A stretch of 64,000 nucleotides of DNA from the NCBI GenBank assembly GCA_943789205.1, contig CALSTG010000001.1, positions 186,001 to 250,000 of the forward strand, read 5' to 3'. The translations under genes were made by a program, and so were the position numbers. This document shows, piece after piece, positions 1-23,574 of this stretch. The DNA is from an uncultured Flavobacteriales bacterium (GTDB taxonomy: Bacteria; Bacteroidota; Bacteroidia; Flavobacteriales_D; Crocinitomicaceae). The notes beneath the pieces were generated by a model. That model saw only the letters and a list, made by a program, of their open reading frames with translations. It searched no databases and was not told where the DNA came from. Numbering within the stretch: the first letter of the stretch is position 1; each line of letters opens with the position of its first letter.

Positions 1-730
1 GATTGTAAGAACATCCTGACGACCAGCTCAAATTGATAACTCTGTGACCGGCGTATGATGCATCAAGTACTTCGTTATAATTCATTTTATATAATGCTAA
101 AGAACTATTATAACCTATTGCACTCTTTCCAATGTCATTACCTGTTGAGCCAGCAGCAGTTATTGCGACTGCAGTACCATGCGTCTGTGAAGAGGTATTC
201 GTTGCATCGTAATGAACATACTTACCAACAAGTTCATCGTGGTCCGCAAAATAGTTCTGGTCTGAAATTGCAAGAACAATATCACTATTACCTGTCGTTA
301 CATCCCATGCCGTTTGCGCATTGATGATGTCTAGAGCGTAATCCTCAGGAAAGACCTTTAGGTAATCGTTAGGCTCATTTAATGTTTCATAAACAGGAGC
401 GTAAGCTACTTTTGAAGACGCGTCTAAAGCATTTGTAAGCTCAGCATACATGTCTACGACATCAGAAGTATATGACGTCAATTCATATACTGATAATAAT
501 GATGCTTGTCTTGAAGATGGAATCGCTCTTTCTACCTCTGTAATATTAAGTGAAGAAATTGCATCTTGAAGAGTAGCATCATTTGAGACTAGTACACCTG
601 ATTCGTTTTCAAATGGAACATCTGAAGGGTTAGAAATTGTAAGCCAAATTTTTGAGGACTCTTGTGAAAATGAAATGAACGTTGCTAAGAGAAAAGCGAC
701 TGTCAGTGGTAAAGATTTAAAAGTATACAT
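1..730 (-). CDS. Subtilase-family secreted protease, partial left copy (N-terminal part; the rest lies off the left edge)
   Basis: Nucleotides 1-730 match 4694-5423, the N-terminal part of the complete subtilase gene, at a constant offset of 4693. The start corresponds to MYTFKSLPLTVAFLLATFISFSQ. Confidence 0.8.
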   Translation of the reverse strand, partial: MYTFKSLPLTVAFLLATFISFSQESSKIWLTISNPSDVPFENESGVLVSNDATLQDAISSLNITEVERAIPSSRQASLLSVYELTSYTSDVVDMYAELTNALDASSKVAYAPVYETLNEPNDYLKVFPEDYALDIINAQTAWDVTTGNSDIVLAISDQNYFADHDELVGKYVHYDATNTSSQTHGTAVAITAAGSTGNDIGKSAIGYNSSLALYKMNYNEVLDASYAGHRVINLSWSSGCSYN

Positions 731-1035
731 ATCCGTGCGTTTTGTTGTTTGTTTGTTTTGTTGACACAAATCTGCGATACTATATGCACCCCTGAAACAA
801 AAACAAGCAAAGCAAATACAAAATACAGATGGACACTATACTCCGACTATGTAATCCCTACGCAGCAATTAGGTGATACTACGTAGACCTATAATTAAAT
901 TAAAAAAAAGAGTAACCTTTTTGATGTATTGGATTTCAGAAGAAAACCCTTGTTTTACTTAGGCTGTAGAAATACACGCTCCGTAGAACCATCAGAATAT
1001 TGATATAAAATAGATAATCATCAAATTATATGAAT

Positions 1036-1066
1036 AAAAAAAAGCGCCTCAAATGAGACGCTCTTA
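1036..1066 (-). terminator. Rho-independent terminator downstream of the small lipoprotein (left copy)
   Basis: The minus strand reads gcgtctcatttgaggcgc followed by a T tract. It lies just 3' of the 1084-1293 CDS and is repeated at about 5729-5759. Confidence 0.7.
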
Positions 1067-1083
1067 ATACAAATAGAAGAATC

Positions 1084-1293
1084 TTAGTGCTCACCGCAGT
1101 GAACAGTATAAACAATACTGTCCATTACATAACCAGTGCTTTCTAGATCTTCAGCTGCGTCTCCACAGTACTCTCCTTCTAGTTCTACTTCAGCTCCATC
1201 AGGACCGTCATAATGACATTCGAAACATTCTTCTTTGTTGCAAGCTGTGCCCGCGATAAGCAGCATTGCTGCAAAAAACATTTTAGTTTTCAT
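1084..1293 (-). CDS. Small Cys-rich lipoprotein (left copy)
   Basis: 69 aa with lipobox-like LLIAGTAC, then CNKEECFECHYDGPDG; identical to 5777-5986. Confidence 0.7.
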   Translation of the reverse strand: MKTKMFFAAMLLIAGTACNKEECFECHYDGPDGAEVELEGEYCGDAAEDLESTGYVMDSIVYTVHCGEH

Positions 1294-1325
1294 AAGTTAA
1301 AATTTAATTGATTATTGATTATTAA

Positions 1326-3191
1326 TTACTTATTTGATTGACTTTTCCCTTCAATACGCCACTTAAGATTAAAATAGAAGCTTCTTCCAGGTTCCATTAA
1401 ACCAAGTGACTTTAGATTAGACATGTGATTAATGTAACTCTCGTTCAATGCATTTCGCACCCCAAAGGAGAACTGAACAGGCCAATTACTATCCCATTTC
1501 ATTTGGCAACCCAACTGCAAAAGATGATAGCCTTCGGTAGCTGTTTCAAGAGGACCTACACGATCTTGATTGAAAAAATAATTGTGTTGAACAATTACCG
1601 ACGCAAAACCAAGCGCTTTATTCTTAGACAATTCAAAACGAACATTGGAACGAAGTCTAGCCTGAGGCATAAAATAAAGATCTTCGCCCTCTTGCACGAT
1701 ACCTAAGTCTCTTCCGAAAGTGTTTGAATATCCAGTTTCAAAATGAAAACGGTGTGCAAAATGTGGATGATAGTGGATACGTGTTTCTATACCATACAGT
1801 AATACGCCATTCTTAGCAGCATACTGATATACATCCATTCCGTCAATAACAGAATCAACCTGAGCGAGTTGTATGTAGCCATTAGCATAAGTGGTGTATG
1901 GATTAAACATAAGCGAAAAATGCTCATTCGAAAGCTCATAGTTGACATCTAGCTGAACAAAACGTTCAGATTTCAAATTACGATCCCCAAGCTCGTATCG
2001 TACAGCCCCATGATGAACACCATCGCTTAACAACTCCGACAAATGAGGCGCTCTAGTTCCTGAGGAAATATGAGCAGAAATATCTTTGATCGATTTCCCT
2101 TTCCACTGTTTTCTTATACCTATCGCAGCATTAAAATTAGTATAGTCTCCGCTAAAATCATCACTCCGAACTTGTCTTAAATCATACCTCACAACAGCGT
2201 TTAATTTTATACCCTTCAAATCATAGGATAAGGAACTATATGCACCAATATCAAATTGATCCGAATCTTGAATTAATTGGGTTTCTGCCCTAGAGCCATT
2301 TTCATTACTCTCGAGGATTGTTTGAACGCCAGACAATATCTGAAGTCTCTTATTTGGATTCCAATGGTGTCTTGCTTGAGCCGAGCTGGAATTCAAATAC
2401 ATATCTATTTCTGGAGTAAAATTCTTCTCGCCATGTTCGGCCAGGTTATTAAAACCGTGATTGACGAAGAATTCTATTTTATTCTTGGCATCGACAAAAT
2501 AGGTCGCTTTAAGATTCCCGAAGTGGTTTTGTATTTTTTGATAGGGTAAAGATTTATCTCTGTCTTGGTAATCAATCATGAAGGACTCAGCTGAGGGACT
2601 TATGTCATGGGTATGGCCCGGAATACCTACTCGAGAATTTGAATACAAATAGTTCAGTTCCCAATTCCACTTTCCAGAATTGTAGCCCAGCTTAAACTTC
2701 CCTCCCATGTCTAGCAGCCGAGAATCACTTAAATATCGAGAGTTAGGTAGCTTGTAGTCTGCATAGCTAGAATAAATACCAGCAGCACTAAAACGTAACT
2801 TTTTACCTGACTGTTTGTAGATGATAGAATTTTGGGTTCCTAAGCTTGCGGTTTCAAATTGCGAATTCACATCTACACTGTAAGAATTCTGCGGTGCAAA
2901 TGAACCGTCTTTCAGATACAACAAACCACCCAGTTGCATCGCCTGTATATATCAAGCGACATTGGGCCCTTGATTACCTCAGCACTTTCCATACCCGCTT
3001 GAGAGATACCCAATCCATGATCTCCTCCCCATTGCTGGTTATTGATACGCATGCCATTCAAAAAGGTCACAACACGCATCCCCTGCATTCCACGAATTAC
3101 CGGCTTTGCATTTAAAGGTCCATAAGACGCCATTTGAACACCATCAATCTGTGAAAGGGCCTCTGTGATGGTGAGTGGTGAAACTATACTC
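1326..3191 (-). pseudogene. TonB-dependent receptor, truncated and frameshifted left copy
   Basis: Matches 6019-7882 but lacks the signal peptide and CarboxypepD_reg-like domain. Two 1-nt insertions near 2935-2960 split it into ORFs 1326-2939 and 2912-3211. Confidence 0.8.
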
Positions 3192-3242
3192 TTTAGTCTT
3201 GAAATAGACAAGATTGAGCTGCATTAAATATTTTGAATAGAC

Positions 3243-3266
3243 AAAGCCTCCTTTTCAGGAGGCTTT
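3243..3266. terminator. Hairpin terminator downstream of the subtilase
   Basis: Perfect stem aaagcctcc-ttttca-ggaggcttt, 25 nt 3' of the subtilase stop on the minus strand. The T tract is weak. Confidence 0.55.
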
Positions 3267-3290
3267 CAATATTCCAATTAAAGATTGGGT

Positions 3291-5423
3291 TTATCTAACT
3301 ATTAACTTCTGTGTATTTAAGTGCTTGTAATCATCTGCTAAGTTGATGAAGTACATTCCCGGATTCAAGTCTTCAACTTTGTATGTGTTTTGCATTGCCA
3401 CAGCTGCATTTTGTACCACTTGTCCATTTGCGTTTACGATTGTGATGTTCGTTACTGATGCACTATTCCATGTTACTGTTGCTGCATCTGTTGTTGGGTT
3501 TGGATAAACACTTGTTTGGATTCCATCCATGTCTTCAATTCCAGCTATACTCATTTCCTCAACGAGTGTATTTGTGATAACATCACATCCATTTGCATCG
3601 ATTACAGTTACTTCATAGAAGCCTGCTGTTACATCAAAAAGATCTTCTGAAGTTTCTCCGTTATTCCATGTGTATGAATACGGTGCAACACCACCAGATA
3701 CTGTTAAATCAATTTCACCATCTTCATCTGATGTTGGTTGTATCACTTCCAAATCTGCTACCAAAGCTGTTGGGCCTTCAACAGTATAGCTTCCCCATAC
3801 ACTACATCCATTTCCGTTTGTAATTTTAAGTCTGTACGTTCCTGGAACAAGACCAGAAATATCTTCAGTCATCATTCCATTATCCCATTCAAAAATGAAA
3901 TCAGGTGTGCCTTCAAGTATCGTAACATCAATCGATCCATTCGCTGCACCATTACAAGTTACATTCTGAACAGTTCCTTCAAATTGTGTAGGAATTACCT
4001 CGTCGATAACTATTGAAGTATCTAATTGACATCCCATAGCATCGATAACAGTCAAGTCATAATGACCTACAGAAAGGTTGTTAAGGCTCAAATCAGTAGC
4101 ACCATTAGACCATTGTGTAGTAAAAGGAGCAGTACCACCAACGATTTCAACTTCAATCTGACCACTATTAGCTAAACAAGTCACACCAGATCTTACGTCC
4201 AAAGAGAACTTATTTATTTCAATGGCTAAATCAACAGCTGCTTTTGCATTTAAACGACCTGCGCCTATTGTTCCTACATAAGAAGGATTCAATGCATCAA
4301 CATTGGTTGAAGAGTTTTTAAGTACCCAAGAGATTTCCGCATTTGTTATACATGGATTCGCATCTAACATCAATCCAATTGTTCCGGTTACTAGAGGTGA
4401 AGCATATGAGCTACCTGAACCATATAAATACCAACCCTGAGCAGCAGAAATTGCGATATCATATCCTGGTGCACTTAAATCAACACTCGCATTATGTTGG
4501 TGTGTTGTTGATGCATCTCCAATTACACGCTCATGGTTGTCACTTGGACCTGTACTCGTTACCGCAAAAACATTATCAAAAGAAGCAGGGTAAACAAGAC
4601 TTTCAGGACCACCGCACGTAGATCCATTTCCTGCAGCTGCTACAATAAAAGTTCCATTTTCATATACTTCATTGATGATATCTTGCACATACTGATTGTA
4701 AGAACATCCTGACGACCAGCTCAAATTGATAACTCTGTGACCGGCGTATGATGCATCAAGTACTTCGTTATAATTCATTTTATATAATGCTAAAGAACTA
4801 TTATAACCTATTGCACTCTTTCCAATGTCATTACCTGTTGAGCCAGCAGCAGTTATTGCGACTGCAGTACCATGCGTCTGTGAAGAGGTATTCGTTGCAT
4901 CGTAATGAACATACTTACCAACAAGTTCATCGTGGTCCGCAAAATAGTTCTGGTCTGAAATTGCAAGAACAATATCACTATTACCTGTCGTTACATCCCA
5001 TGCCGTTTGCGCATTGATGATGTCTAGAGCGTAATCCTCAGGAAAGACCTTTAGGTAATCGTTAGGCTCATTTAATGTTTCATAAACAGGAGCGTAAGCT
5101 ACTTTTGAAGACGCGTCTAAAGCATTTGTAAGCTCAGCATACATGTCTACGACATCAGAAGTATATGACGTCAATTCATATACTGATAATAATGATGCTT
5201 GTCTTGAAGATGGAATCGCTCTTTCTACCTCTGTAATATTAAGTGAAGAAATTGCATCTTGAAGAGTAGCATCATTTGAGACTAGTACACCTGATTCGTT
5301 TTCAAATGGAACATCTGAAGGGTTAGAAATTGTAAGCCAAATTTTTGAGGACTCTTGTGAAAATGAAATGAACGTTGCTAAGAGAAAAGCGACTGTCAGT
5401 GGTAAAGATTTAAAAGTATACAT
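3291..5423 (-). CDS. Secreted subtilisin-like serine protease with SprB-like repeats and a T9SS type A sorting domain
   Basis: THGTAVAI and GSSYASPLVTG subtilase motifs; C-terminal VYPNPTTDAATV...GMYFINL...LIVR type A sorting domain. ORF 3291-5462, with a more likely start at internal MYTFKSL (signal peptide). Confidence 0.9.
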   Translation of the reverse strand: MYTFKSLPLTVAFLLATFISFSQESSKIWLTISNPSDVPFENESGVLVSNDATLQDAISSLNITEVERAIPSSRQASLLSVYELTSYTSDVVDMYAELTNALDASSKVAYAPVYETLNEPNDYLKVFPEDYALDIINAQTAWDVTTGNSDIVLAISDQNYFADHDELVGKYVHYDATNTSSQTHGTAVAITAAGSTGNDIGKSAIGYNSSLALYKMNYNEVLDASYAGHRVINLSWSSGCSYNQYVQDIINEVYENGTFIVAAAGNGSTCGGPESLVYPASFDNVFAVTSTGPSDNHERVIGDASTTHQHNASVDLSAPGYDIAISAAQGWYLYGSGSSYASPLVTGTIGLMLDANPCITNAEISWVLKNSSTNVDALNPSYVGTIGAGRLNAKAAVDLAIEINKFSLDVRSGVTCLANSGQIEVEIVGGTAPFTTQWSNGATDLSLNNLSVGHYDLTVIDAMGCQLDTSIVIDEVIPTQFEGTVQNVTCNGAANGSIDVTILEGTPDFIFEWDNGMMTEDISGLVPGTYRLKITNGNGCSVWGSYTVEGPTALVADLEVIQPTSDEDGEIDLTVSGGVAPYSYTWNNGETSEDLFDVTAGFYEVTVIDANGCDVITNTLVEEMSIAGIEDMDGIQTSVYPNPTTDAATVTWNSASVTNITIVNANGQVVQNAAVAMQNTYKVEDLNPGMYFINLADDYKHLNTQKLIVR

Positions 5424-7882
5424 ATCCGTGCGTTTTGTTGTTTGTTTGTTTTGTTGACACAAATCTGCGATACTATATGCACCCCTGAAACAAAAACAAG
5501 CAAAGCAAATACAAAATACAGATGGACACTATACTCCGACTATGTAATCCCTACGCAGCAATTAGGTGATACTACGTAGACCTATAATTAAATTAAAAAA
5601 AAGAGTAACCTTTTTGATGTATTGGATTTCAGAAGAAAACCCTTGTTTTACTTAGGCTGTAGAAATACACGCTCCGTAGAACCATCAGAATATTGATATA
5701 AAATAGATAATCATCAAATTATATGAATAAAAAAAAGCGCCTCAAATGAGACGCTCTTAATACAAATAGAAGAATCTTAGTGCTCACCGCAGTGAACAGT
5801 ATAAACAATACTGTCCATTACATAACCAGTGCTTTCTAGATCTTCAGCTGCGTCTCCACAGTACTCTCCTTCTAGTTCTACTTCAGCTCCATCAGGACCG
5901 TCATAATGACATTCGAAACATTCTTCTTTGTTGCAAGCTGTGCCCGCGATAAGCAGCATTGCTGCAAAAAACATTTTAGTTTTCATAAGTTAAAATTTAA
6001 TTGATTATTGATTATTAATTACTTATTTGATTGACTTTTCCCTTCAATACGCCACTTAAGATTAAAATAGAAGCTTCTTCCAGGTTCCATTAAACCAAGT
6101 GACTTTAGATTAGACATGTGATTAATGTAACTCTCGTTCAATGCATTTCGCACCCCAAAGGAGAACTGAACAGGCCAATTACTATCCCATTTCATTTGGC
6201 AACCCAACTGCAAAAGATGATAGCCTTCGGTAGCTGTTTCAAGAGGACCTACACGATCTTGATTGAAAAAATAATTGTGTTGAACAATTACCGACGCAAA
6301 ACCAAGCGCTTTATTCTTAGACAATTCAAAACGAACATTGGAACGAAGTCTAGCCTGAGGCATAAAATAAAGATCTTCGCCCTCTTGCACGATACCTAAG
6401 TCTCTTCCGAAAGTGTTTGAATATCCAGTTTCAAAATGAAAACGGTGTGCAAAATGTGGATGATAGTGGATACGTGTTTCTATACCATACAGTAATACGC
6501 CATTCTTAGCAGCATACTGATATACATCCATTCCGTCAATAACAGAATCAACCTGAGCGAGTTGTATGTAGCCATTAGCATAAGTGGTGTATGGATTAAA
6601 CATAAGCGAAAAATGCTCATTCGAAAGCTCATAGTTGACATCTAGCTGAACAAAACGTTCAGATTTCAAATTACGATCCCCAAGCTCGTATCGTACAGCC
6701 CCATGATGAACACCATCGCTTAACAACTCCGACAAATGAGGCGCTCTAGTTCCTGAGGAAATATGAGCAGAAATATCTTTGATCGATTTCCCTTTCCACT
6801 GTTTTCTTATACCTATCGCAGCATTAAAATTAGTATAGTCTCCGCTAAAATCATCACTCCGAACTTGTCTTAAATCATACCTCACAACAGCGTTTAATTT
6901 TATACCCTTCAAATCATAGGATAAGGAACTATATGCACCAATATCAAATTGATCCGAATCTTGAATTAATTGGGTTTCTGCCCTAGAGCCATTTTCATTA
7001 CTCTCGAGGATTGTTTGAACGCCAGACAATATCTGAAGTCTCTTATTTGGATTCCAATGGTGTCTTGCTTGAGCCGAGCTGGAATTCAAATACATATCTA
7101 TTTCTGGAGTAAAATTCTTCTCGCCATGTTCGGCCAGGTTATTAAAACCGTGATTGACGAAGAATTCTATTTTATTCTTGGCATCGACAAAATAGGTCGC
7201 TTTAAGATTCCCGAAGTGGTTTTGTATTTTTTGATAGGGTAAAGATTTATCTCTGTCTTGGTAATCAATCATGAAGGACTCAGCTGAGGGACTTATGTCA
7301 TGGGTATGGCCCGGAATACCTACTCGAGAATTTGAATACAAATAGTTCAGTTCCCAATTCCACTTTCCAGAATTGTAGCCCAGCTTAAACTTCCCTCCCA
7401 TGTCTAGCAGCCGAGAATCACTTAAATATCGAGAGTTAGGTAGCTTGTAGTCTGCATAGCTAGAATAAATACCAGCAGCACTAAAACGTAACTTTTTACC
7501 TGACTGTTTGTAGATGATAGAATTTTGGGTTCCTAAGCTTGCGGTTTCAAATTGCGAATTCACATCTACACTGTAAGAATTCTGCGGTGCAAAAGAACCA
7601 TCTTTTAGATACAACAAACCACCCGTAGCATCTCCTGTATAAATCAAAGACATAGGGCCTTTGATTACCTCAGCACTTTCCATACCCGCTTGAGAGATAC
7701 CCAATCCATGATCTCCTCCCCATTGCTGGTTATTGATACGCATGCCATTCAAAAAGGTCACAACACGCATCCCCTGCATTCCACGAATTACCGGCTTTGC
7801 ATTTAAAGGTCCATAAGACGCCATTTGAACACCATCAATCTGTGAAAGGGCCTCTGTGATGGTGAGTGGTGAAACTATACTC
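4694..7882. repeat. Right copy of the ~4.69 kb direct duplication
   Basis: Same comparison. The right copy carries the intact TonB receptor and subtilase. Confidence 0.95.
5777..5986 (-). CDS. Small Cys-rich lipoprotein (right copy)
   Basis: Same as 1084-1293; directly downstream of the TonB receptor on the same strand. Confidence 0.75.
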   Translation of the reverse strand: MKTKMFFAAMLLIAGTACNKEECFECHYDGPDGAEVELEGEYCGDAAEDLESTGYVMDSIVYTVHCGEH

Positions 7883-8262
7883 AACTGATCCAACTCTATA
7901 AAATCAGTCTTTTGCGTCATACTCCCTTGCAATTCGCGACGTTCCACGCGCACCATAATCTCTTGCATGTTGTGAGGATCAGGATCGATTGAAAGTGTTA
8001 TGAAATCACAACATGTAATTGAAACAGTTTTAGTTTCATAGGTTGCGAGACTGACTTCAATGACAAGCTGCTCTGGCCAATCACCTTCAAAGGAAAAGGC
8101 CCCCTGTACATCAGAATAGGTTGCTACCTGCAATTCTTTCAGCTCTATTTTTGCACCTGGTATAGGTTCATTGGTTAAACCATCAGTTACTACTCCAGAT
8201 AGTTGTTGTGCGAAACTCACAAATCCTGAGAAAAACAGGACAAAACAAGAAATTTTATGCAT
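6019..8262 (-). CDS. TonB-dependent outer-membrane receptor with N-terminal carboxypeptidase-regulatory-like domain
   Basis: 747 aa: signal peptide, GVVTDGLTNEPIPGAKIEL (CarboxypepD_reg-like), plug motif EVIKGPMSLIYTGDATGGLLYL, and a beta-barrel ending NLKWRIE. Confidence 0.92.
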   Translation of the reverse strand: MHKISCFVLFFSGFVSFAQQLSGVVTDGLTNEPIPGAKIELKELQVATYSDVQGAFSFEGDWPEQLVIEVSLATYETKTVSITCCDFITLSIDPDPHNMQEIMVRVERRELQGSMTQKTDFIELDQLSIVSPLTITEALSQIDGVQMASYGPLNAKPVIRGMQGMRVVTFLNGMRINNQQWGGDHGLGISQAGMESAEVIKGPMSLIYTGDATGGLLYLKDGSFAPQNSYSVDVNSQFETASLGTQNSIIYKQSGKKLRFSAAGIYSSYADYKLPNSRYLSDSRLLDMGGKFKLGYNSGKWNWELNYLYSNSRVGIPGHTHDISPSAESFMIDYQDRDKSLPYQKIQNHFGNLKATYFVDAKNKIEFFVNHGFNNLAEHGEKNFTPEIDMYLNSSSAQARHHWNPNKRLQILSGVQTILESNENGSRAETQLIQDSDQFDIGAYSSLSYDLKGIKLNAVVRYDLRQVRSDDFSGDYTNFNAAIGIRKQWKGKSIKDISAHISSGTRAPHLSELLSDGVHHGAVRYELGDRNLKSERFVQLDVNYELSNEHFSLMFNPYTTYANGYIQLAQVDSVIDGMDVYQYAAKNGVLLYGIETRIHYHPHFAHRFHFETGYSNTFGRDLGIVQEGEDLYFMPQARLRSNVRFELSKNKALGFASVIVQHNYFFNQDRVGPLETATEGYHLLQLGCQMKWDSNWPVQFSFGVRNALNESYINHMSNLKSLGLMEPGRSFYFNLKWRIEGKSQSNK

Positions 8263-8294
8263 TAATTTAAATTTACGTTACGATTTACTTTGAA

Positions 8295-8636
8295 TCAGGC
8301 TTGGTATTTTCGTAACGATTGAGGAGGACCTCTTTGTGTTCTATTGAATATTCTCCCTAGGGTAACAGCGTGGAATCCAACGTTTGGAAGAGCTTCACAA
8401 AAGTTAACAGGGACTCGAATTATAGAGAATTCAGGAAGATCCAACGCGTGAAAAGCATAATGACACTTTTCGCAGTCTGACACTTCACAGGATAGGCCAT
8501 TATCGGAGTTTGTTTGTGAATCCAATTCATGTGGATGATCCGAATGTAAGTGACCCTGGCAATCATGCATTACCGACTTGGGAACAAGCATAATCGCCAT
8601 CCCAAATATTACGGTATATAAAAACGCTTTTCGCAT
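8295..8636 (-). CDS. Small His/Cys-rich, probably membrane-anchored or secreted protein, upstream of the TonB receptor
   Basis: ATG start at MRKAFLYTVIFGMAIML (hydrophobic N-terminus), then HDCQGHLHSDHPHE and CEVSDCEKCHYAFH; same strand as the receptor with a ~30 bp gap. Confidence 0.65.
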   Translation of the reverse strand: MRKAFLYTVIFGMAIMLVPKSVMHDCQGHLHSDHPHELDSQTNSDNGLSCEVSDCEKCHYAFHALDLPEFSIIRVPVNFCEALPNVGFHAVTLGRIFNRTQRGPPQSLRKYQA

Positions 8637-8666
8637 CAAGTGCAAAATTACTACCTATAAATCAAT

Positions 8667-8685
8667 ATTGCAAGTCAGTTGCAAT
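8667..8685. promoter_or_regulatory. Perfect 7-5-7 inverted repeat ATTGCAA-gtcag-TTGCAAT, candidate operator
   Basis: Exact palindromic arms in the intergenic region upstream of the 8636 start. A TAATTTTG-like -7 box lies on the minus strand at 8643-8650. Confidence 0.45.
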
Positions 8686-8777
8686 AATTAATTTATTTAA
8701 ATAAACGAAGTATAAACTTTGCAGAACTGTCTTGTAAAATCCTAAAAAAACTTTTACATTGACATAAATTAATCTGC

Positions 8778-9260
8778 ATGAAACATCTGGTGTTAGGACT
8801 TTCTTTTTTGACAAGTCTTTCTTTATGTGCTCAAATTGAGCTTTCTAGAGATGTTATGAGTTGTGCTGGACAATCTGTGAGCAGCTCAAATATGCAAATG
8901 AGCTACACCATTGGCGAGACCTTTTACATTGCCACGATTGAAAATTCGGCATACATACATTAGGTTTTCAGCAACCCGATAGCAAACCAGGCACTGAGCT
9001 TCCCTTTTGCCATTCCTGGTGGACTTTCACCAAATGGAGACGGAAACAATGACTCTTGGGACATTCAGGATTGGTAGATTATCCCCGATGCATCGGTGAA
9101 TGTATTTGATCGTTGGGGGCAGAAAGTATATTCAGGCACTGCACAAGATCCAGCATGGGACGGAACGACTAATGCGTGAATGCCCCAACTGCAGATTATT
9201 ATTATATCCTCGATTTGGGAGATGGACAGACCTACAACGGTGTCGTTACACTCAAAAAGT
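8778..9260 (+). pseudogene. Short T9SS type B cargo protein remnant (signal peptide plus CHU_C/gliding-motility C-terminal domain), disrupted
   Basis: ORF 8778-8963 starts MKHLVLGLSFLTSLSLCAQ. The following frames encode HTLGFQQPDSKPGTEL, AIPGGLSPNGDGNNDSWDIQ, PDASVNVFDRWGQKVYSG and ADYYYILDLGDGQTYNGVVTLKK, interrupted by several frameshifts and stops. Confidence 0.75.
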
Positions 9261-9268
9261 AGAAGCTT

Positions 9269-9712
9269 ATGAAAAATATTGAACGTCTTCTATTTCTGTT
9301 ATTTGTTTTTGGTTTAAGCACCTTGAATGCCCAGCAATTACCGATGTACAGCCAATTCTTTTGGAACGACTTCGTGATCAACCCTGCCTATACGGGTGTC
9401 ACAAATTCGCCTCGAGTTCAGCTTGGATACCGCAACCAATGGGGAGGATTTGAAGGCGCACCTTCCACATACACTCTTGGTGGGCACACCCTACTCAAAA
9501 ATAAGAAAATGGGCTTAGGCGGCATGCTCTTCATGGACGATGCAGGCGGTGCTGTTTCGCAAATGGGGCTCCTACTCAACTACAATTACATTCTTAAGCT
9601 TAATGAGAAATCGAATTTATCTATGGCGGTATCTGGAGTGATTAACCAGTACAGCTATGATGGCTCAGGGATTGAAAATATTGATCCAGACCCAAGTTTG
9701 GTGCTACATTAA
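9269..9712 (+). pseudogene. PorP/SprF family T9SS membrane protein, 5' fragment only
   Basis: 147 aa with signal peptide MKNIERLLFLLFVFGLSTLNAQQ. High identity to the N-terminal part of the gene at 13981-15620 up to PDPSL (about 9701), then it runs out of frame into LamG-coding sequence. Confidence 0.85.
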
Positions 9713-12700
9713 CCACAGACCGTTTTGGAACAGCTAATTCCGCTTATGATTTTGATGGGGTTGATGACCTCATTGACTACGGCAATATAGCCTCATTGAA
9801 TGGTCAGTCCGCACTGACAATTTCGGTTTGGTTCAAATCGTTAGGAAATGTGTTTTATTCGAGAATATTGGGCAAGGAGTTGGATGGGGACGGTCAAAAC
9901 GGTTTTACGCTGTCCTACTCAACTAATAACGGTAGTAATTTACGCGTAAATATGCGTAATAATGCCAATGGACAAGGTGATAATTCAACCCTCACCATTT
10001 TAAACAATCAATGGTACCATGCTGTATTTGTATTTGATGGCAACGGGAATACAAACTCAGATAAGTTGAAGCTTTTCATTGATGGTATAAACGTTTCTTT
10101 GACTTACAATGGTGCATTGACAAGTGCCACCTCGACCAACTCTTACCCTTTTTATGTTGGTAACATGAACGGTAATATTTCGGAGTCCCCTTTCCATGGA
10201 GATATCGACGACATCGGGATCTGGAACCGAGCATTGACCGAATGTGAGATTCAAGACTTGTCTAATGCGGAACTCAATGCCCCGACGGTAGATTTAGGAG
10301 ATGACCAAACTTTGTGTGCAGGAAACAACTTAGTTTTAGACGCAGGAGCGGGATACAACTACTACAACTGGAGCACAGGTGAAACCACACAAACCATTAC
10401 CGTTAGTGCGGCGGGAACTTACACCGCTACGGTGGGAGATTCAACTCCAGTGTTGAACAATCATTCCATGAGTTTTGATGGGGATGACTATATCCAAGGT
10501 AATGCATCAGGTAGTTCACTTGACGTTTCTAGCAATAACACAATTACAATGAATGCTTGGATAAAACCAAATGCAAATTCTGATGGAGGAACCATATTTT
10601 CCTATTGGCCTAATGGCTTGAATGGTTCGGTTATTACCAATTGCTCGTATCCGAATGTTCCTGTTCATCAGTATATGTTGAAGCTAGGCTCGGATAATAC
10701 CATATACTTCTTGGCCAGCGCCTGTAATGTAAATGTGAATCAATTTGAACAAGGGGAAGCAAATGTAACTGTCGAAACTTTAAGTCCATCGGAGTGGCAT
10801 TATGTATCCATGACATACGACACCCAGACCATCAAGCTATACATTGACGGAAATTTAAGTTACACCCACATAGTAACTGGTACCTTTGACCAATACAACC
10901 AGGGTGAATACTACATCGGTTCCGATAACGGATCTGACCGAGTTGAAGGACATTTGGACGATATTAACATCTGGAATACGGCACTCACTCAAGTTGAAAT
11001 CCAGCAATACATGAATTGTCCTCCTACTGGAAATGAAGCAGGATTAGTGGGATATTGGAACTTTGAGGAAGGTAGTGGAAATACGGCCATAGACCAAACA
11101 TCAAATGGAAACGACGGAACTATAAATGGCGCAACGTGGAGTACGGATACACCTGAACAGGTTTGTATGGGATGCACGGCCACAGATACCGTTGCGATCT
11201 CAGTGATCGACCCCACCATCACGGCATCTGCCGAGACGATTTGTATTGGGGATAGTGTGGAATTGAGTGTTGCAAGCCCGAGTGGATACTCTTTAGATTT
11301 CGACGGGGATGATGATTACAATGACTTTGGATCAGGAATGAATAATATGACTTTTCCTATTTCGATACAAGCAGATTTATTATTTCCAAATTTAACTAAT
11401 GGTGATGACGGGTTTATGGTATTTTCATCCGATGAAAATCCAAATAATTATAGTGGTTTCTGGTTTTTTATTGGTCCAAATACAATTGAATTATCATACG
11501 GAGATGGTTCGGCAACAACAGTAAATTCTAGAAGATCAAAAATCGCAAACCATACAATAACGGAAGACAATTGGGTAAATATATCCGGAACTATAAACGG
11601 CCCAACCGATATAACAATACGAGTCAATGGAATAGATATTGGTGGAGATTATAGCGGTAACGGCGGAAATATGATTGACCAAGGGTTTAATGCCTCATGC
11701 GGTATGTACAATGATAATCCAGGCACCACAAACTACTATTATAATGCCCTTATTGATAATTTAACAGTTTGGAACACAGCGCTTACTGAATCCGAAATTC
11801 AACAATACATGACCTGCCCGCCAAACGGCACTGAAGCAGGACTAGTAGGCTATTGGAACTTCGAAGAAGGAAGCGGAACAACTGCAAATGACCTAACCTC
11901 TAATGGGAACAATGGAACCATCAACGGAGCGGTTTACAGCACAGATGTTCCAACGACATGCAATTCTGCCGACATCACGTGGTCTACAGGAGAAACTTCA
12001 TCCTCCATCACGGTCACTCCATCTCAAACCACTACCTACTCCGTAACTGTCGATGACGGAATCGCATCGTGTACAGATGATATTGAAATTACAGTGAGTG
12101 ATCCTCAAATAGATTTTGGAGGTGACCAAACCATTTGTTCTGGAGATGATTTGGAGCTTGATGCAGGAGCGGGATACAATTACTACAACTGGAGCACAGG
12201 TGAAACCACACAAACCATTACCGTTAGTGCGGCAGGAACTTACACCGCCACGGTGGGAGATTCAACTCCAGTGGTCAATGACTATTCCATGAGCTTTGAT
12301 GGTCAGGATGATTATGTTGATCTTAATGTTAATTATGCGCCAACCAACAACGCAGATGCTACAATTTCATTTTGGACTATTTATAATGGTAATAATGGTG
12401 GTAACATTATCAGTAAGTATGAAAATTTGCAACCAACAAATAGCAATTATTTCATAAGCGTAAATGGACCTACAAATACTTACAGAGTCACAGGTGATGG
12501 CACTGACGTTCTAGATTTTGGCACTGTACAACAAAATATTTGGACTCATATTACGGTCGTTTTTCAGAGCGACGGCACTGTGAACTGTTATGTTGATGGA
12601 GTAATTCAGGGGAATGGTACAATTAATTTAAATACTAATCTTGCATCAGTATCAACTAGCATTGGAAAAGTGAATGGTTCCTTTCCCGGATTCTATGATG

Positions 12701-13974
12701 GCAGTATCGACAATTTACAAATCTGGAGCACTGCCCTGTCCCAATCCGAAATCCAGAACTACATGAACTGCCCTCCTACTGGAAACGAAGCGGGATTAGT
12801 TGGATACTGGAACTTTGAGGAAGGTAGTGGAAATACGGCCATAGACCAAACATCAAATGGTAATGATGGCAGCATCAATGGAGCAACTTACGACACTGAT
12901 ACACCCGAGCAAGTTTGCGTATCCTGCACGGCTACATCTGATGTTGTAGTGACAGAAGCTGTACCAACGAGCAGCACAGATACTCAAGAAGCCTGCGAAT
13001 CGTTTACCTGGATTGATGGAAACACCTATACAGATGACAATACAACAGCAACTTTTGTCACTACAAACGCCGCTGGATGCGACAGTACCATCACGCTCGA
13101 CCTTACAATCCTTGAATCGTCAAGTAGTACAGATATCCATGAAGTATGTGATGAGTTCACTTGGATTGACGGAAACACTTACACAGAGAACAACAATAAC
13201 GCCACCTTTACAACTACAAATACTGCAGGATGTGACAGTGTCATCACATTAAATCTGACCATCAACAACCTAACTACTTTAGATGCAGGTATTGACCAAA
13301 CGGTTTGTGAAGGCACCGATATAACACTGACTGCAACTGGAGCTGCAGTTTATGATTGGGATGATGATATTCAGAATGGAGTTCCATTCAACGCACAATT
13401 GGGTTCAAATACCTACACGGTTGAAGGAACGGATGCAAATGGTTGTGAGGATGAACAATCAGTCACCATCACAGGTACACCTTATCCTGAATTGATTTTT
13501 GAGGTTACGGACCCTGCCTGTCAGGGAGAATCCTCAGGTAACATTGTGGCTGTTGCTAGCAATGGCACAGCACCATACAGCTTTGTCTGGAACAATGGAA
13601 CGCTGCAATCGGAGAATAATGGGGTTGGCGCAGGAACCTACGAAGTCACTGTTACTGATGATAATGAATGTGAGACCCAAGGATCTGTTGCGGTGATTGA
13701 TCCAACAGAGCCATGCTTCTTCATTCCAGGAGGTCTAACGCCAAATGGTGATGGAGCAAATGAGACCTGGGAGATTGGAGGGTTGTCGCAATATCCAGAT
13801 GCCAAAGTAATGGTCTATGACCGTTGGGGACAGCAAGTATATACAGGAGAATACAGTTCTGCTGCATGGGATGGCACATCAAATGGAAAGGAATGTCCTA
13901 CTGCAGATTATTATTATATCCTCGATTTGGGAGATGGACAAAAATTTAACGGTGTGGTTACGCTCAAAAAGTAG
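9704..13974 (+). CDS. LamG/concanavalin-like multi-domain surface protein with T9SS type B (CHU_C) C-terminal domain; N-terminus missing
   Basis: ORF called at 9796, but the frame is open upstream to about 9703 and encodes GATLTTDRFGTANSAYDFDGVDDLIDYGNI. LamG-like domains, Ig-like DLGDDQTLCAGNNLVLDAGAGYNYYNWSTGET repeats, two TWIDGNTYT repeats, and C-terminal PNGDGANETWEI...YDRWGQQVYTG...VVTLKK. Confidence 0.88.
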
Positions 13975-13980
13975 AAGCTT

Positions 13981-15620
13981 ATGAAAAATTTGAACGTCTT
14001 CTATTTCTGTTATTCGTTTTTGGTTTAAGCACCTTGAATGCACAACAATTACCGATGTACAGCCAATTCTTTTGGAACGACTTCGTCATCAACCCTGCCT
14101 ATACGGGTGTCACAAATTCGCCTCGAGTTCAGCTTGGATACCGCAACCAATGGGGAGGATTTGAAGGCGCACCTTCCACATACACACTTGGTGGGCATAC
14201 CCTACTCAAAAACAAGAAAATGGGCTTAGGCGGCATGCTCTTCATGGACGATGCAGGCGGTGCTGTTTCGCAAATGGGGCTCCTACTCAACTACAATTAC
14301 ATTCTTAAACTTAATGAGAAATCGAATTTATCTATGGCGGTGTCTGGGGTGATTAATCAGTACAGCTATGATGGTTCAGGGATTGAAAACATAGACCCAG
14401 ATCCGAGCCTAAGCGGCAGTATCAAGCAAATGTCCCCAGACATGAGCTTTGGGCTTTTGTATTCCTTAAGTGATAAATTGCGCGTTGGATTAGGTGTCAA
14501 CCAATTGATTCAAAGCCGACTTTCTAAATTGGATGATTTAAATGCGCTATCATTGGGTGAGAATCGATTGATCAGGCACTATAATTTTTCAACATCCTAT
14601 TCCTTTAAACTATCAGAATCCTTTGATTTAGATCCTTATTTTTTGTTGCGCAGTACTATGATTGCGCCTCCTCTAATCGAATTGGGCACCAAGGGAACCT
14701 TTAATGATTTACTTTTCTTTGGTTTGAGCTATAGACATCTCGAATCTGCTATTGCGATGTTGGGGGTTAATTTTAAAAATACGGTCTTAGCGTACAGCTA
14801 CGATTACAATACTTCTGATATTAGTGGTTATTCCAATGGCTCTCATGAGGTGCTACTCGCCTATCAATTTAAGAATCCTGAACCTCCTACAGAACCCAAA
14901 AAAGAGGAAAACCCAGACAGAGATGGAGACGGCATTCTTGACAAGGATGATTTATGTCCTGACACTCCAGGATTAAAAGAATTTAAAGGATGCCCTGATA
15001 CAGACAGTGATGGCTTATTTGATGCGATTGACGATTGTCCGAAAACCTTTGGACCAAAAGAAAACAATGGCTGTCCCTACCCAGACACAGATGGAGATGG
15101 ATTACTTGACAATGCAGACGATTGCCCAAACATTGCCGGTCCTGTCGAAAACAAAGGATGCCCATATAAGGATACTGATGGTGATGGCCTTTTAGATAAA
15201 GACGATGAGTGCCCAATGACTCCTGGCCCAAAAGAAAACAAAGGATGCCCAATCATAGAAAAAGAAGAGCAAGAAGTATTGAATACTGCCTTTAGTAATT
15301 TAGAGTTTGAAACCAGCCTTGATGTCATTAAATCGGGGTCCAAACCTGCCCTTATTGAGCTTGCCAATACACTGAAAAAGAAACCTGATTGGAAGCTAAA
15401 ACTTTCAGGTCATACCGACAATGTGGGTGATGATGATGCCAATATGGTTCTATCTAAAAAACGTGCTGAATCAGTTAAGAAATTTCTTACTACTCAGGGA
15501 ATTGATGAAAATCGAATAAAGACGGAATTCTTTGGTGAATCCAAACCTATCGCCGCTAACGACACATCAGCAGGTCGTCAGAAAAATAGACGGGTTGAAT
15601 TCAAGATTAGATTTGACTGA
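13981..15620 (+). CDS. PorP/SprF family protein fused to TSP3-like calcium-binding repeats and an OmpA peptidoglycan-binding domain
   Basis: QQLPMYSQFFWNDFVINPAYTG (PorP/SprF); DRDGDGILDKDD/DTDGDGLLD repeats; LSGHTDNVGDD...NRRVEFKI (OmpA). The signal-peptide start at 13981 is out of frame by 1 nt, so the ORF is called from 14034. Confidence 0.9.
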
Positions 15621-15702: not shown

Positions 15703-16321
15703 ATGAAAAAATTTGCTTTACTATTAACAGCGGCATTTTCAATGACGCTTATCTTGGACTCGTGTTCAGTCCAAAAACGCTATCACAGAAAAGGATTCAC
15801 AGTAAACTGGAATAATGCTTCTGTAAACATGAAGAAAAACCGTAAGGTTGTTCATACGGAATCGATTCAAGAGGATGCTATTGTTTCGAACACTATTGAA
15901 AAAAAGAAGTTAACAAAGAACTATGAGACACCGGTTTCAATGGACATTGCTTCTACAAGTGTCGCGGCTCCGACTTTAACAAATACTGCACCATCAATTG
16001 CAGCGCACTCTTCCGTTAAAAATCAAGCTGTGACTTTTGCAAATACTGCAAAAGCGATGAGCAAAGAAGATGTTAAATCAACCAAGAAGGCCGCCAAAGA
16101 AAATTATTAAGGCCATCAAAAAGAACCAACAGCAAGATTCGAAAACAGATACAATCATCTATCTGTTATTAATTCTTCTTGTGCCTTTTGGAACTACTAT
16201 TTCGATGTATCTTTATGAAGGGTCATGGACAGGACGTGTTACAGCGAACTTGTTACTCACTCTACTTTGTGGACTTCCAGGATTGATTCATGCTTTAGTT
16301 GTAATATTTGGAAACAAATAA
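15703..16321 (+). CDS. Lipoprotein-type N-terminus joined to YqaE/Pmp3-like membrane domain; one apparent frameshift near 16095
   Basis: ORF 15703-16110 (MKKFALLL...LDSCSVQKRYH) continues in ORF 16070-16321 (KKIIKAIKKN...TIIYLLLILLVPFGTTISMYLYEG...LLTLLCGLPGLIHALVVI) after a 1-nt shift in gccaaagaaaatt. Confidence 0.7.
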
Positions 16322-16343
16322 AGTATTGAATACACTTTTTAAA

Positions 16344-16635
16344 ATGCTTCTAGCCTCAGTGCTAGGAGCATTTCTTTTTTTATTTTTCTTACCTGCGGAC
16401 TATTTTGATTCCGGGCAAAGTATGTGTGTATCCATTTGGTTATTTGATCTAGAATGTTTTGGGTGTGGTCTAACTAGGGGAATAATGCATTTGATGCATT
16501 TGGAATTTCAAGAGGCTTGGGAGTTTCAATAAATTATCGTTTCTAATAATGCCTATTGGTTTGTTACTCTGGATACATCTTTTCGGTATTCTTATCGGGA
16601 GAAGTTATTTCTCTTTCTTTAAAAGGTTCTACTAA
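16344..16635 (+). CDS. DUF2752-like small membrane protein; one apparent frameshift near 16525
   Basis: LECFGCGLTRGIMHLMHLEFQEAWEF; after removing one T from gagtttcaat the frame continues NKLSFLIMPIGLLLWIHLFGILIGRSYFSFFKRFY-stop. Confidence 0.65.
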
Positions 16636-16777
16636 AACACTTATTATCAGCAGCTTAAGATAAAGATTGATTACGCAGCATTTTACGTAAAAAAATTGTA
16701 TCATTTCTTTCAATATTAAGGCATCCTTTTAAAAACCTAAACGTCTTAACAACACTCACCTTGCTACAAATTAAACA

Positions 16778-19700
16778 ATGCGCTACTCTCTTTTTACCTG
16801 TGCGTTGCTTTTTGGATTTTTTATTACAACCGCAAAAGCACAGAAACAAACTTTAAGTGTTGACCATGACCTTAACCATGTCAACGCGAAAAGCCCAGAA
16901 AACATTATCCGCTGTTACACCATGGAAATGGATGAACAGAGAAGGAATAAGCACCCAGAACTTCCTAGTCTACAAGAAGAAGAACATCTTTTCAAAGAAG
17001 AAATAGAAAATTACAAGAAAGGAAAAGGACAAAATATGAACAAGGCCACCTTGCTCACAATTCCTTGTATATTTCACATAATAACGGATGGAGCTGGAGC
17101 CGAAAATATATCTGCTGCCCAAGTTCAAGCTCAAGTTGATCAATTAAATATTGATTTTAGAAATTTAGCCGGCTCTACAGATCCCGCAGCTGCCGATGTT
17201 GAGATCGAGTTTTGCTTAGCAATTCTCGATGAAAGCGACAATCTTTTACCAGAACAAGGAATCAATCGTGTAACTGACTACGGTGAAGGCCCTTTCAATA
17301 CTGGATTTATAGATGGTACAATTAAACCGGGAACGATATGGAATCCAGATGAATACATGAACGTATGGGTTGCTGACATAACGGGTGGCATTCTTGGCTA
17401 TGCGCAATTTCCGAGCAATTCAGGTTTAGGTGGTTTAAATGCAAATGGAGGAGCCGCAGCTACAGATGGCGTTGTTCATTTATATTCAACAATAGGTTCT
17501 GTTGCCAATCCATTTCCAGGAGGCGCACCATATAACTTAGGAAGAACCATGACCCATGAAGTTGGACATTGGCTCGGTTTACGTCACATATGGGGAGATG
17601 CAAATTGTGGAAATGATTTCTGTGCAGATACACCACAATCACAAACTTCAAACTTCGGATGTCCAAACCTTACGACCTGTGATGGAAATCAAGACATGGT
17701 AGAAAACTACATGGATTACACGAATGATGCATGTATGGATATTTTTACAGCAGACCAAAAAGACAGAATACGAACCGTAATGGATAACTGCCCTCGCCGA
17801 GCATTACTTCCGTTATCCGAAAAATGTGGCTTACCACAACCAACAATAAGTTTTGTGAATACAAATGGAGGTACAATAAATGAAGGAGAAAACTGCGACT
17901 ATGTGGACATTCCAGTAGATCTGCAAATTTCATTACCTCCAACAGATGACGCAACCGTTACATTTACACTTGGGGGAAATACCACGGCTACCCAAGGAGT
18001 AGACTTTGACATTATACCCGCATCAACAATTTTTCTGGCCAACGTAACAAACAATCAAAGCTTCATCCTTCGTATTTACAATGATGCAATTCTTGAGAAT
18101 TCCGAAATAATTGAATTACAAATCGTTGTAACTACGGCTGGAGACGCAGTTGCATCATTAGTTTCAGGAACATATACACTAACTATTTTAGACGCCAACT
18201 TTGTGGCATCGAATATTCTCTATGAGGATTTTGAATCAGGTGGCTTAGGTACTTTTACAACTCAAGGAGCCGCCACTTCCGATTTATTTCAAAATGGAAA
18301 TACGGCTAATGCTTCGAGTCAGTTCTGGATTATAGAGCCATCTAACGCTACACAGTTCGCCTATACCAATGATGATGCCTGTGATTGTGATAAATCGAAC
18401 GATCTTTTAACCTCTCCTGTTTTTAGCCTTGCTGGTTTAACCGGTGATGTTTTTCTTGAATTTGACCATGCTTTTTCTGCTGAAACCTATGAAACTGCCG
18501 AAGTCGAAATTAACACAGGTGCTGGATGGAATAATTTAATAACCCTAGCAAATGCAAGCGCAAATAACAACAACACCTTAACAACGCCATGGGTAGTTGG
18601 AAATCAGACGCTGTTAACACCATTTATTGGATCAAACAATGTTCAAATTCGTTTTATATATAACGATGGAGGCAATTGGGCATATGGTTTAGCTATCGAT
18701 AATATTCGGGTGTATTCAGATGCACCCATCGCTTCAAATAACCTTGCTGGTATGGATACTCAAGCTTCCTGTGGACCATTCACTTGGATTGATGGAAATA
18801 CATATACTGCATCAAACAATACGGCTACTTACACTATTGTCGGTGGTGGTGCAAATGGTTGTGATTCCCTAGTGACTTTAGACCTTACAATTAGCAATAC
18901 CGTAAATGGAACAGATACACAAGCTGCTTGTGGAACATTTACTTGGATTGATGGAAATACATATACTACATCAAACAATACGGCTACCTACAATATTCTC
19001 GGTGGTCGAAATGGTTGTGATTCCTTGTGACTTTAGACCTTACAATTAGCAATACCGTAAATGGAACTGATACTCAAGCTGCCTGCGAAAGCTATACTTG
19101 GATTGATGGAAATACATATACTACTTCTAACAATACGGCTACTTACACTATTTCGCTGGTCACAAATGGTTGTGATTCCTTAGTGACTTTAGATCTTACA
19201 ATTAGCAATACCGTAAATGGAACTGATACACAAGCTGCTTGTGGAACATTTACTTGGATTGATGGAAATACATATACTACATCAAACAATACGGCTACCT
19301 ACACTATTGTCGGTGGTGCAGCAAATGGTTGTGATTCCCTAGTGACTTTAGACCTTACAATTAGCAATACCGTAAATGGAACAGATACACAAGCTGCTTG
19401 TGGAACATTTACTTGGATTGATGGAAATACATATACTACATCAAACAATACGGCTACCTACACTATTGTCGGTGGTGCAGCAAATGGTTGTGATTCCTTA
19501 GTGACTTTAGACCTTACAATTAGCAATACCGTAAATGGAACAGATACACAAGCTGCCTGCGAAAGCTATACTTGGATTGATGGAAATACATATACTACTT
19601 CTAACAATACGGCTACTTACACTATTGTCGCTGGTTCAGCAAATGGTTGTGATTCCTTAGTGACTTTAGATCTTACAATTAGCAATACCGTAAATGGAAC

Positions 19701-22700: not shown

Positions 22701-23574
22701 CTGTGATAGTTATACTTGGATTGATGGCAATACGTATACTGAAAATAACACCACCGCAACATATACATACATAGGAGGAACAAGTAATGGATGTGATTCA
22801 ATTGTGAATTTAAACCTAACAATAAATAAACTCACAAGCTTAAGCCCCGGTGTTGATTTATCCCTTTGTGAAGGCGATGTATTCACGCCGAATGCCACGG
22901 GCGCCTTATATTACTCTTGGAATGGTGGCCTAGTGAACGGAACTGCATTTACACCTCAAGTTGGCGTTAACGAATATACGGTTATAGGCACAGACATTAA
23001 CAATTGCAATGCTTCCGCAAGTATTTTCATAAACACCACAAGTTTACCTTCACTTGTTTTGACAAGCTCTGATCCTATTTGTGCAGGTGATCCTTCAGGG
23101 TCTATTTCTATTGATGTTAGCGAAGGTACACCACCCTATTCCATTGAATGGAGTAATAATGAAAATACATTCAATCTTGAGAATATCATTGCAGGCCTTT
23201 ATGATGCAATTGTTACAGATGATGCTGGTTGCCAAATAACAATAGCTGAAACAATTTCAAATCCGCTTGAGCCATGTTATGAGCTTCCTGAGACGTTCTT
23301 TTATGTCCCTAATACTTTTACTCCTGATGCAGATGAACACAATCAAAACTGGTTTATTATTCTTTCTGGAGTTGATCCACTTTCTTATTCATTGAGAATA
23401 TACAATCGATGGGGTGAGGTCATTTGGGAATCCTTTGACATTGATGCAAAGTGGGACGGCACCTATAGAAATCTTGACGTGCCCGAAGGAACATACACTT
23501 GGCAACTTGAATATCGTCGTTTATCGGAAGCTAATAAAAATACCGAAACGGGTCACATCAATTTACTTCGTTAG
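16778..23574 (+). CDS. Secreted M43 (pappalysin-like) metalloprotease with long repeat array and T9SS type B C-terminal domain; split by an apparent frameshift at about 19026
   Basis: HEVGHWLGLRHIWGD zinc motif, VENYMDYTNDACMDIFT Met-turn region, Calx-beta-like domain, ~20 TWIDGNTYT repeats, PKD-like domain, C-terminal VPNTFTPDADEHNQNW...NRWGEVIWES...HINLLR. ORFs 16778-19030 and 19027-23574 join if ccttgtgac is restored to ccttagtgac as in the sister repeats. Confidence 0.88.
18749..20965 (+). repeat. Tandem array of 14 near-identical ~159-bp (53-aa) in-frame repeats
   Basis: Unit GTDTQAACGTFTWIDGNTYTTSNNTATYTIVGGAANGCDSLVTLDLTISNTVN, with very low nucleotide divergence between units. Confidence 0.95.
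21886..22835 (+). repeat. Six diverged copies of the same 53-aa repeat
   Basis: For example GTDIQVACETFTWIDGINYTSNNNTATFTYPNGAVAGCDSIVTLDLTVNNSIS and FTDIQTACDSYTWIDGNTYTENNTTATYTYIGGTSNGCDSIVNLNLTI. Confidence 0.85.

What the first reader, a model, noticed from the sequence alone, without database searches (positions are those of the whole stretch)
8960..14412. LamG adhesin body flanked by direct repeats of a CHU_C-PorP cassette: possible cassette-exchange locus or chimera
The 3' end of a T9SS-B gene plus the first ~430 bp of porP occur at about 8990-9701 and again at about 13720-14412, only a few percent diverged in the porP part. At about 9701/9702 the left porP fragment is joined to the middle of a LamG domain (GATLTTDRFGTANSAYDFDG) with no start or signal peptide. 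Recombination between the two porP copies would delete the LamG body and rebuild one porP with an intact signal peptide. That architecture would suit surface-cargo switching, but a hybrid assembly of two paralogous loci would look the same.
Basis: partly seen in the sequence, partly recalled or inferred. Interest (0 to 1): 0.65.

Follow-up and report, generated by a model that had tools for sequence, protein, structure and literature searches.

The report
Misjoined adhesin and shuttle gene copies
The odd repeat around a surface-adhesin gene in this marine bacterium is most likely a false join in the genome assembly that mixes two versions of an ordinary adhesin-plus-anchor gene pair, rather than a device for swapping surface proteins.

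Summary
The repeat is real in the sequence. Window 9011-9700 matches 13722-14411 (offset 4711 bp): the end of a type-B T9SS cargo gene plus the first ~430 bp of porP. All 19 porP differences over 378 nt are synonymous (dN 0, dS 0.27). At 9700/9701 the left porP fragment runs into a LamG adhesin gene that lacks about 58 N-terminal codons compared with its G014 counterpart. In relatives the same place holds one complete cargo-shuttle pair: a 160-aa cargo or a 925-2000-aa adhesin, then porP-OmpA. None of the mapped loci has a second, truncated porP. The assembly looks faulty here. Two more (1049 and 617 bp, 100%) turned up in 740 kb sampled elsewhere in this genome, against none in 800 kb of two control genomes. 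Consensus-type frameshifts cluster around the joints. Most likely the joint is an assembly chimera of two haplotypes or overlapping contigs (0.75). A real one-ended illegitimate insertion remains possible (0.18). A dedicated cargo-exchange system is not supported.

The parts
1..3190 (.). Visible part of copy 1 of a 4693-bp head-to-tail duplication (copy 1 starts 1502 bp left of the window): end of the subtilase gene copy plus TonB receptor cut at about codon 128
   Evidence: 99.7% to 3191-7882; 11 of 12 internal differences lie in 2901-2969
3191..7882 (.). Copy 2 of the duplication: subtilase with Por_Secre_tail (3291-5462 -) and most of the intact TonB receptor
6019..8262 (-). Intact TonB-dependent receptor, syntenic landmark
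   Evidence: 82-86% aa in G041, G040, G047; Pfam Plug and TonB barrel
8295..8645 (-). Small conserved gene of unknown function, syntenic landmark
   Evidence: present between TonB and the cargo locus in relatives; no Pfam match
8778..9262 (+). 160-aa type-B cargo gene (signal peptide plus CHU_C), frame broken by several single-base indels in 8933-9186
   Evidence: alignment with the intact G047 gene; CHU_C in the G047 protein
9269..9700 (+). Left porP fragment, first ~144 codons with intact signal peptide
   Evidence: PorP_SprF positions 2-125 of 273; 19 synonymous differences from the right copy
9700..9701 (.). Joint between porP and LamG gene, most likely false
   Evidence: frame change; homology between left and right copies ends here
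9701..13974 (+). LamG adhesin gene (four LamG domains, CHU_C at the C-terminus), N-terminus of about 58 codons missing
   Evidence: Pfam; G014 counterpart with N-terminus
13722..14411 (+). Right copy of the repeated CHU_C end plus porP start
13982..15620 (+). PorP-TSP3-OmpA fusion gene, the presumed shuttle and anchor; signal peptide broken by a 1-nt deletion near 13991
   Evidence: Pfam PorP_SprF, TSP_3, OmpA; frame comparison

Best explanation
In the organism this locus is most likely an ordinary type-B T9SS cargo gene followed directly by its PorP shuttle (here a PorP-TSP3-OmpA fusion). Two versions occur in the sampled population: a 160-aa cargo before porP-OmpA, and a LamG adhesin before porP-OmpA. 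The assembly joined pieces of the two. A segment of about 6.5 kb (3191-9700) seems to have been placed between two others without removing its overlap on the left (4.69 kb left duplicated) and with a chimeric joint on the right, where porP of one version was stuck to about codon 59 of the LamG gene of the other. Shown: the duplication, the joint, purely synonymous divergence, frameshift clusters, other exact tandem joins in the same genome, single complete pairs in relatives. Inferred: that the joins are artefacts and that the left piece comes from a co-occurring haplotype. How the pair works (Sec export, T9SS passage, PorP-dependent secretion and anchorage) is inferred from published systems.
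For: Zero-gap 4693-bp tandem duplication directly to the left; two more exact ones (1049 and 617 bp, 100%) in 740 kb of the same genome against 0 in 800 kb of two others. Left and right porP differ only synonymously, with the stretch next to the joint as diverged as between species, so the fragment was recently part of a working gene. Divergent-allele patch with blended 1-nt insertions in TonB copy 1. Frameshifts in 6 of 10 genes between -4 and +19 kb, 0 of 14 outside. Relatives have either small cargo-porP or large adhesin-porP and no truncated porP. The G014 LamG gene has its own N-terminus and signal peptide.
Against: No reads or depth could be examined. The 390-bp near-identical island (9261-9650) between two more diverged stretches fits real gene conversion as well as consensus blending. 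The LamG N-terminus is not found elsewhere in the assembly, so the other half of the chimera is not at hand. Frameshifts also occur at lower density elsewhere in the window. The control for exact duplications is small.
Confidence: 0.75

Rival explanations
1. A real recent rearrangement: DNA carrying LamG-CHU_C-porP entered a cell with small cargo-porP, recombined by homology downstream of or in porP-OmpA, and was joined illegitimately on the other side (porP codon ~144 to LamG codon ~59), leaving the resident cargo and a truncated porP as orphans. The adjacent 4.69-kb tandem duplication would be a separate real event.
For: The topology fits one-ended (homology-facilitated illegitimate) insertion, as proposed for T6SS effector modules (PMC5361080). 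The region is a recombination mosaic: G047 jumps to 91-100% at 16.1-17.9 kb from ~64-84% before it, G040 to 94% at 20.4-22.5 kb.
Against: Needs two or three independent recent events within 10 kb, leaves a LamG gene without start and a shuttle with a broken signal peptide, and does not explain the blended indels or the other exact duplications in this genome.
Confidence: 0.18
2. A cassette-exchange or phase-switch locus: the two porP copies recombine to delete or exchange the LamG body and so switch the surface cargo served by one shuttle.
For: Direct repeats 4711 bp apart; a crossover would restore one porP with an intact signal peptide. The predicted product exists as the normal locus in relatives.
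Against: No recombinase, inverted repeats or silent cassettes at the locus; LamG body and porP 5' end have no further copies in the genome. The assembled LamG gene cannot be exported without a start and signal peptide. Loss by recombination would be one-way. None of the relatives mapped has the double-porP form.
Confidence: 0.04
3. An old duplicated cassette decaying in place: left cargo and porP are pseudogenes from an ancient tandem duplication.
For: The left cargo gene has several frameshifting indels and porP is truncated.
Against: No nonsynonymous change in 19 porP differences (chance without constraint about 3e-13, or 1e-6 if nine fell on the left copy).
Confidence: 0.03

Closest known systems
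False tandem duplications and haplotype chimeras in (meta)genome assemblies
   Same: Zero-gap head-to-tail copies with arbitrary ends inside genes, near-identical, with interrupted ORFs and mixed-allele patches near the joints
   Different: Not provable without reads; assembler and read type of this genome are unknown to me
Type-B CTD cargo and cognate PorP/SprF shuttle pairs (SprB-SprF and others of Flavobacterium johnsoniae; PG1035-PorP-PorE of P. gingivalis)
   Same: CHU_C cargo gene directly upstream of a PorP_SprF gene, gap 46-71 nt in the genus; published pairs have the shuttle gene directly downstream (PMC12618676, PMC9143113)
   Different: The shuttle here is fused to TSP3 repeats and an OmpA domain, as if PorP and the peptidoglycan-binding end of PorE were one chain; the cargo differs widely between species at the orthologous shuttle
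Module displacement by homology-facilitated illegitimate recombination (T6SS effector-immunity arrays of Vibrio cholerae, PMC5361080)
   Same: One homologous end, one illegitimate joint, an orphaned remnant of the resident module would result
   Different: There immunity genes stay intact downstream; here the remnant would be a cargo gene and a truncated shuttle upstream, and its reality is unproven

Membership tests
Assembly false duplication / haplotype chimera | Adjacent near-identical copies without spacer, ends at arbitrary positions in genes | tested here: met
   4693-bp unit at -1502..7882; the 9701 joint itself is a homology end, not a full copy
Assembly false duplication / haplotype chimera | Recurs elsewhere in the same assembly beyond the level of other genomes | tested here: met
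   3 in 824 kb vs 0 in 800 kb of G026 and G015; small numbers
Assembly false duplication / haplotype chimera | Relatives have a single intact locus | tested here: met
Assembly false duplication / haplotype chimera | Read depth or spanning reads reject the joint | not testable with these tools
   No reads held
Type-B cargo and PorP/SprF shuttle pair | CHU_C C-terminal domain on the cargo | tested here: met
   PF13585 in the LamG protein (9e-21) and in the G047 small cargo (5e-22)
Type-B cargo and PorP/SprF shuttle pair | PorP_SprF gene directly downstream | tested here: met
   PF11751 5e-67; same order in genus loci
Type-B cargo and PorP/SprF shuttle pair | Cargo with signal peptide | tested here: not met
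   Absent in the assembled LamG gene because of the 9701 joint; present in the G014 counterpart. So the assembled gene is not a complete member, the natural allele probably is
Type-B cargo and PorP/SprF shuttle pair | Secretion of the cargo depends on this shuttle | not testable with these tools
   Needs experiment
Cassette-exchange / phase-variable locus | Recombinase gene or site-specific inverted repeats at the locus | tested here: not met
   No inverted repeat of at least 40 bp in the window; no recombinase in the ORFs around the joint by inspection
Cassette-exchange / phase-variable locus | Alternative silent cassettes in the genome | tested here: not met
Cassette-exchange / phase-variable locus | Both forms in one population | not testable with these tools
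   Needs reads or PCR
Homology-facilitated illegitimate insertion | One homologous end, one non-homologous joint | tested here: inconclusive
   Topology fits, but the joint is not shown to be real

The most novel reading that the evidence does not exclude
The joint is real and the population holds both forms: direct porP repeats let a single T9SS shuttle locus gain or lose a LamG adhesin cassette, switching the anchored surface cargo.
Probability: 0.05. Interest if true: 0.6.

Novelty: not a real feature. Interest (0 to 1): 0.17.

Why it matters
If the joint is false, it warns that this assembly carries unmerged overlaps and mixed-haplotype patches, so duplications and pseudogenes in it should not be read as biology. 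What remains is modest but real: one PorP-OmpA shuttle locus in this genus is preceded by very different type-B cargo genes in different species, a natural series for asking how shuttle specificity tolerates cargo change.

Tried and rejected
Searched the own genome for a second LamG body or an orphan LamG N-terminus: only internal LamG units of the same gene and three other LamG genes in their own frames. Considered sequencing error as the source of the left/right porP differences: rejected, all 19 are synonymous. Considered an old degenerate duplicate: rejected for porP, and unlikely for the small cargo gene, whose indels are dense and partly compensating. Considered in-frame repeat expansion for the duplications: rejected, the units cross gene boundaries, and 1049 and 617 bp are not multiples of three. 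A short-read contig break in G047 between the small cargo gene and porP codon 68 hints at a repeat or strain variation there but could not be resolved. The first Pfam call failed on a wrong frame and was repeated. A 1394-bp identical gene pair (L093/L101) was set aside because its copies are not adjacent. Structure prediction was not used; it would not bear on the joint.

Full report
WHAT IS THERE. The window is C1:186001-250000 of a 2.59-Mb, 7-contig genome. The closest matches in named records are marine Crocinitomicaceae/Flavobacteriales MAGs, one named UBA952. It comprises the end of a CHU_C (type-B T9SS) gene and the first ~430 bp of porP. The CHU_C part is about 60-75% identical; of the 378 porP nucleotides compared, the first 300 are 97.7% identical and the last 78, next to the joint, 85%. 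At 9700/9701 the left porP runs into a LamG gene in another frame. That gene has four LamG domains and a C-terminal CHU_C domain and is followed by a full PorP-TSP3-OmpA gene.

Joining the 20 kb to the left shows a zero-gap head-to-tail duplication: window -1502..3190 matches 3191..7882 at 99.7%. Eleven of its 12 internal differences lie in 2901-2969: nine third-position changes in TonB, which mark a different allele, and two single-base insertions that look like a blend of two alleles. So the segment 3191-9700 lies between two suspicious joints.

IS THE LEFT PORP A FOSSIL? No. All 19 differences from the right copy are synonymous (dN 0, dS 0.27). With 22% synonymous opportunity, the chance under no constraint is about 3e-13 for all 19, or 1e-6 if nine arose on the left. 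The end next to the joint is about as diverged from the right copy as porP is between species of the genus, still without amino-acid change. It was part of a working full-length porP until very recently, or still is in another cell.

SYNTENY. In L067 and L069 the order is TonB, a small conserved gene, a 160-aa cargo with CHU_C, then porP-OmpA; G040 is the same with one further gene before the cargo; L070 has small cargo then porP-OmpA. In G041 (L068/L078) a 2000-aa repeat protein lies between the small cargo and porP-OmpA. L065, G014 and G003 have large adhesins directly before porP-OmpA. Of 86 genus genomes, 19 (own included) hold a PorP of this type at E <= 1e-50. Wherever the upstream gene could be read, it ends in a CHU_C-like tail 46-71 nt before the porP frame, with cargo sizes from 160 to 2000 aa (tails judged by eye). 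The loci mapped show one porP each and no truncated copy. The G014 LamG gene starts MKKHFK..GLVGWWPFNGNANDLSGNGNNGTVN before GATLTTDR, so the G000 gene lacks about 58 codons. No orphan piece of that kind was found elsewhere in the assembly.

ASSEMBLY QUALITY. With intact ORFs of relatives as rulers, 6 of 10 genes between -4.0 and +19.1 kb carry frameshifts (M3 peptidase, TonB copy 1, small cargo, porP start, the gene at 15703-16321, the M43 giant) against 0 of 14 outside (Fisher about 0.0016, worked by hand from these counts, genes not chosen blind). In the small cargo and M3 genes the indels are dense and partly compensating. In 740 kb sampled elsewhere two more zero-gap 100% duplications appeared: 1049 bp at C1:2181453 and 617 bp at C2:244146 (bioA and the next gene by my reading of the proteins). 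None was found in 800 kb of a one-contig genome (G026) and a genus member (G015). These are what unmerged contig overlaps look like: arbitrary ends inside genes, no spacer, near-perfect identity.

MECHANISM. The locus itself is an ordinary cargo-shuttle pair. In F. [quoted passage not shown] gingivalis with PorE, whose OmpA-like end binds peptidoglycan (PMC9143113). A PorP-OmpA fusion would do both jobs in one chain (inference). The assembled arrangement is best explained as a chimera of a small-cargo allele and a LamG allele, probably with a misplaced 6.5-kb segment. The main rival is a real one-ended illegitimate insertion as proposed for T6SS modules (PMC5361080); it would account for the joint but not for the neighbouring exact duplications and blended indels. 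A switch is not supported.

LIMITS. No reads, depth or assembly metadata were available; assembler and read type are unknown. The co-occurrence of two haplotypes is inferred. The near-identical island in porP (about 9261-9650) could be real gene conversion as well as consensus blending. The control for exact duplications is small.

Noticed in passing
window 1-7882 (C1:184498-193882): Zero-gap 4693-bp head-to-tail duplication of a subtilase gene and most of a TonB receptor, with a 70-bp patch of a different allele in copy 1; not mentioned in the finding.
   Followed up: yes
L139:1453-3552 (C1:2181453-2183552) and L141:4146-5379 (C2:244146-245379): Two further exact head-to-tail duplications (1049 and 617 bp, 100% identical) with ends inside genes, suggesting unmerged contig overlaps in this assembly.
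   Followed up: partly
window 13982-15620: PorP barrel, TSP3 repeats and an OmpA domain in one chain: looks like PorP and the peptidoglycan-binding end of PorE fused, which would support the published PorP-PorE partnership.
   Followed up: partly
window 9701-15620 and orthologous loci L065-L070, L025, L026, L105-L119: The gene directly upstream of the orthologous PorP-OmpA shuttle varies between species from a 160-aa protein to 2000-aa repeat or LamG adhesins, all with similar C-terminal tails.
   Followed up: partly
window 16100-22500: Mosaic similarity: G047 jumps to 91-100% nucleotide identity at 16.1-17.9 kb and G040 to 94% at 20.4-22.5 kb against about 64-84% around, a sign of recombination between species.
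   Followed up: partly
window 18693-22767: M43-protease-type giant gene with about 17 copies of a 159-bp unit (61-99% alike), frame broken near 19027.
   Followed up: no
window 36756-43918: SprB-repeat-like giant gene on the minus strand that falls into three overlapping ORFs, apparently through two frameshifts.
   Followed up: no
L003:16017-17730 (window -3984..-2271): M3 peptidase gene with several single-base indels against an intact counterpart in G041, just left of the tandem duplication.
   Followed up: partly
L101:2360-7793: Tyrosine recombinase gene followed by two 100% identical copies (1394 bp) of an adenylate-cyclase-like gene flanking an esterase-like gene; possibly gene cassettes.
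   Followed up: no
L124:4833-10473 (C1:114833-120473): Array of about 22 copies of a 258-bp unit over 5.6 kb; array shifted by one unit matches itself at 99%.
   Followed up: no
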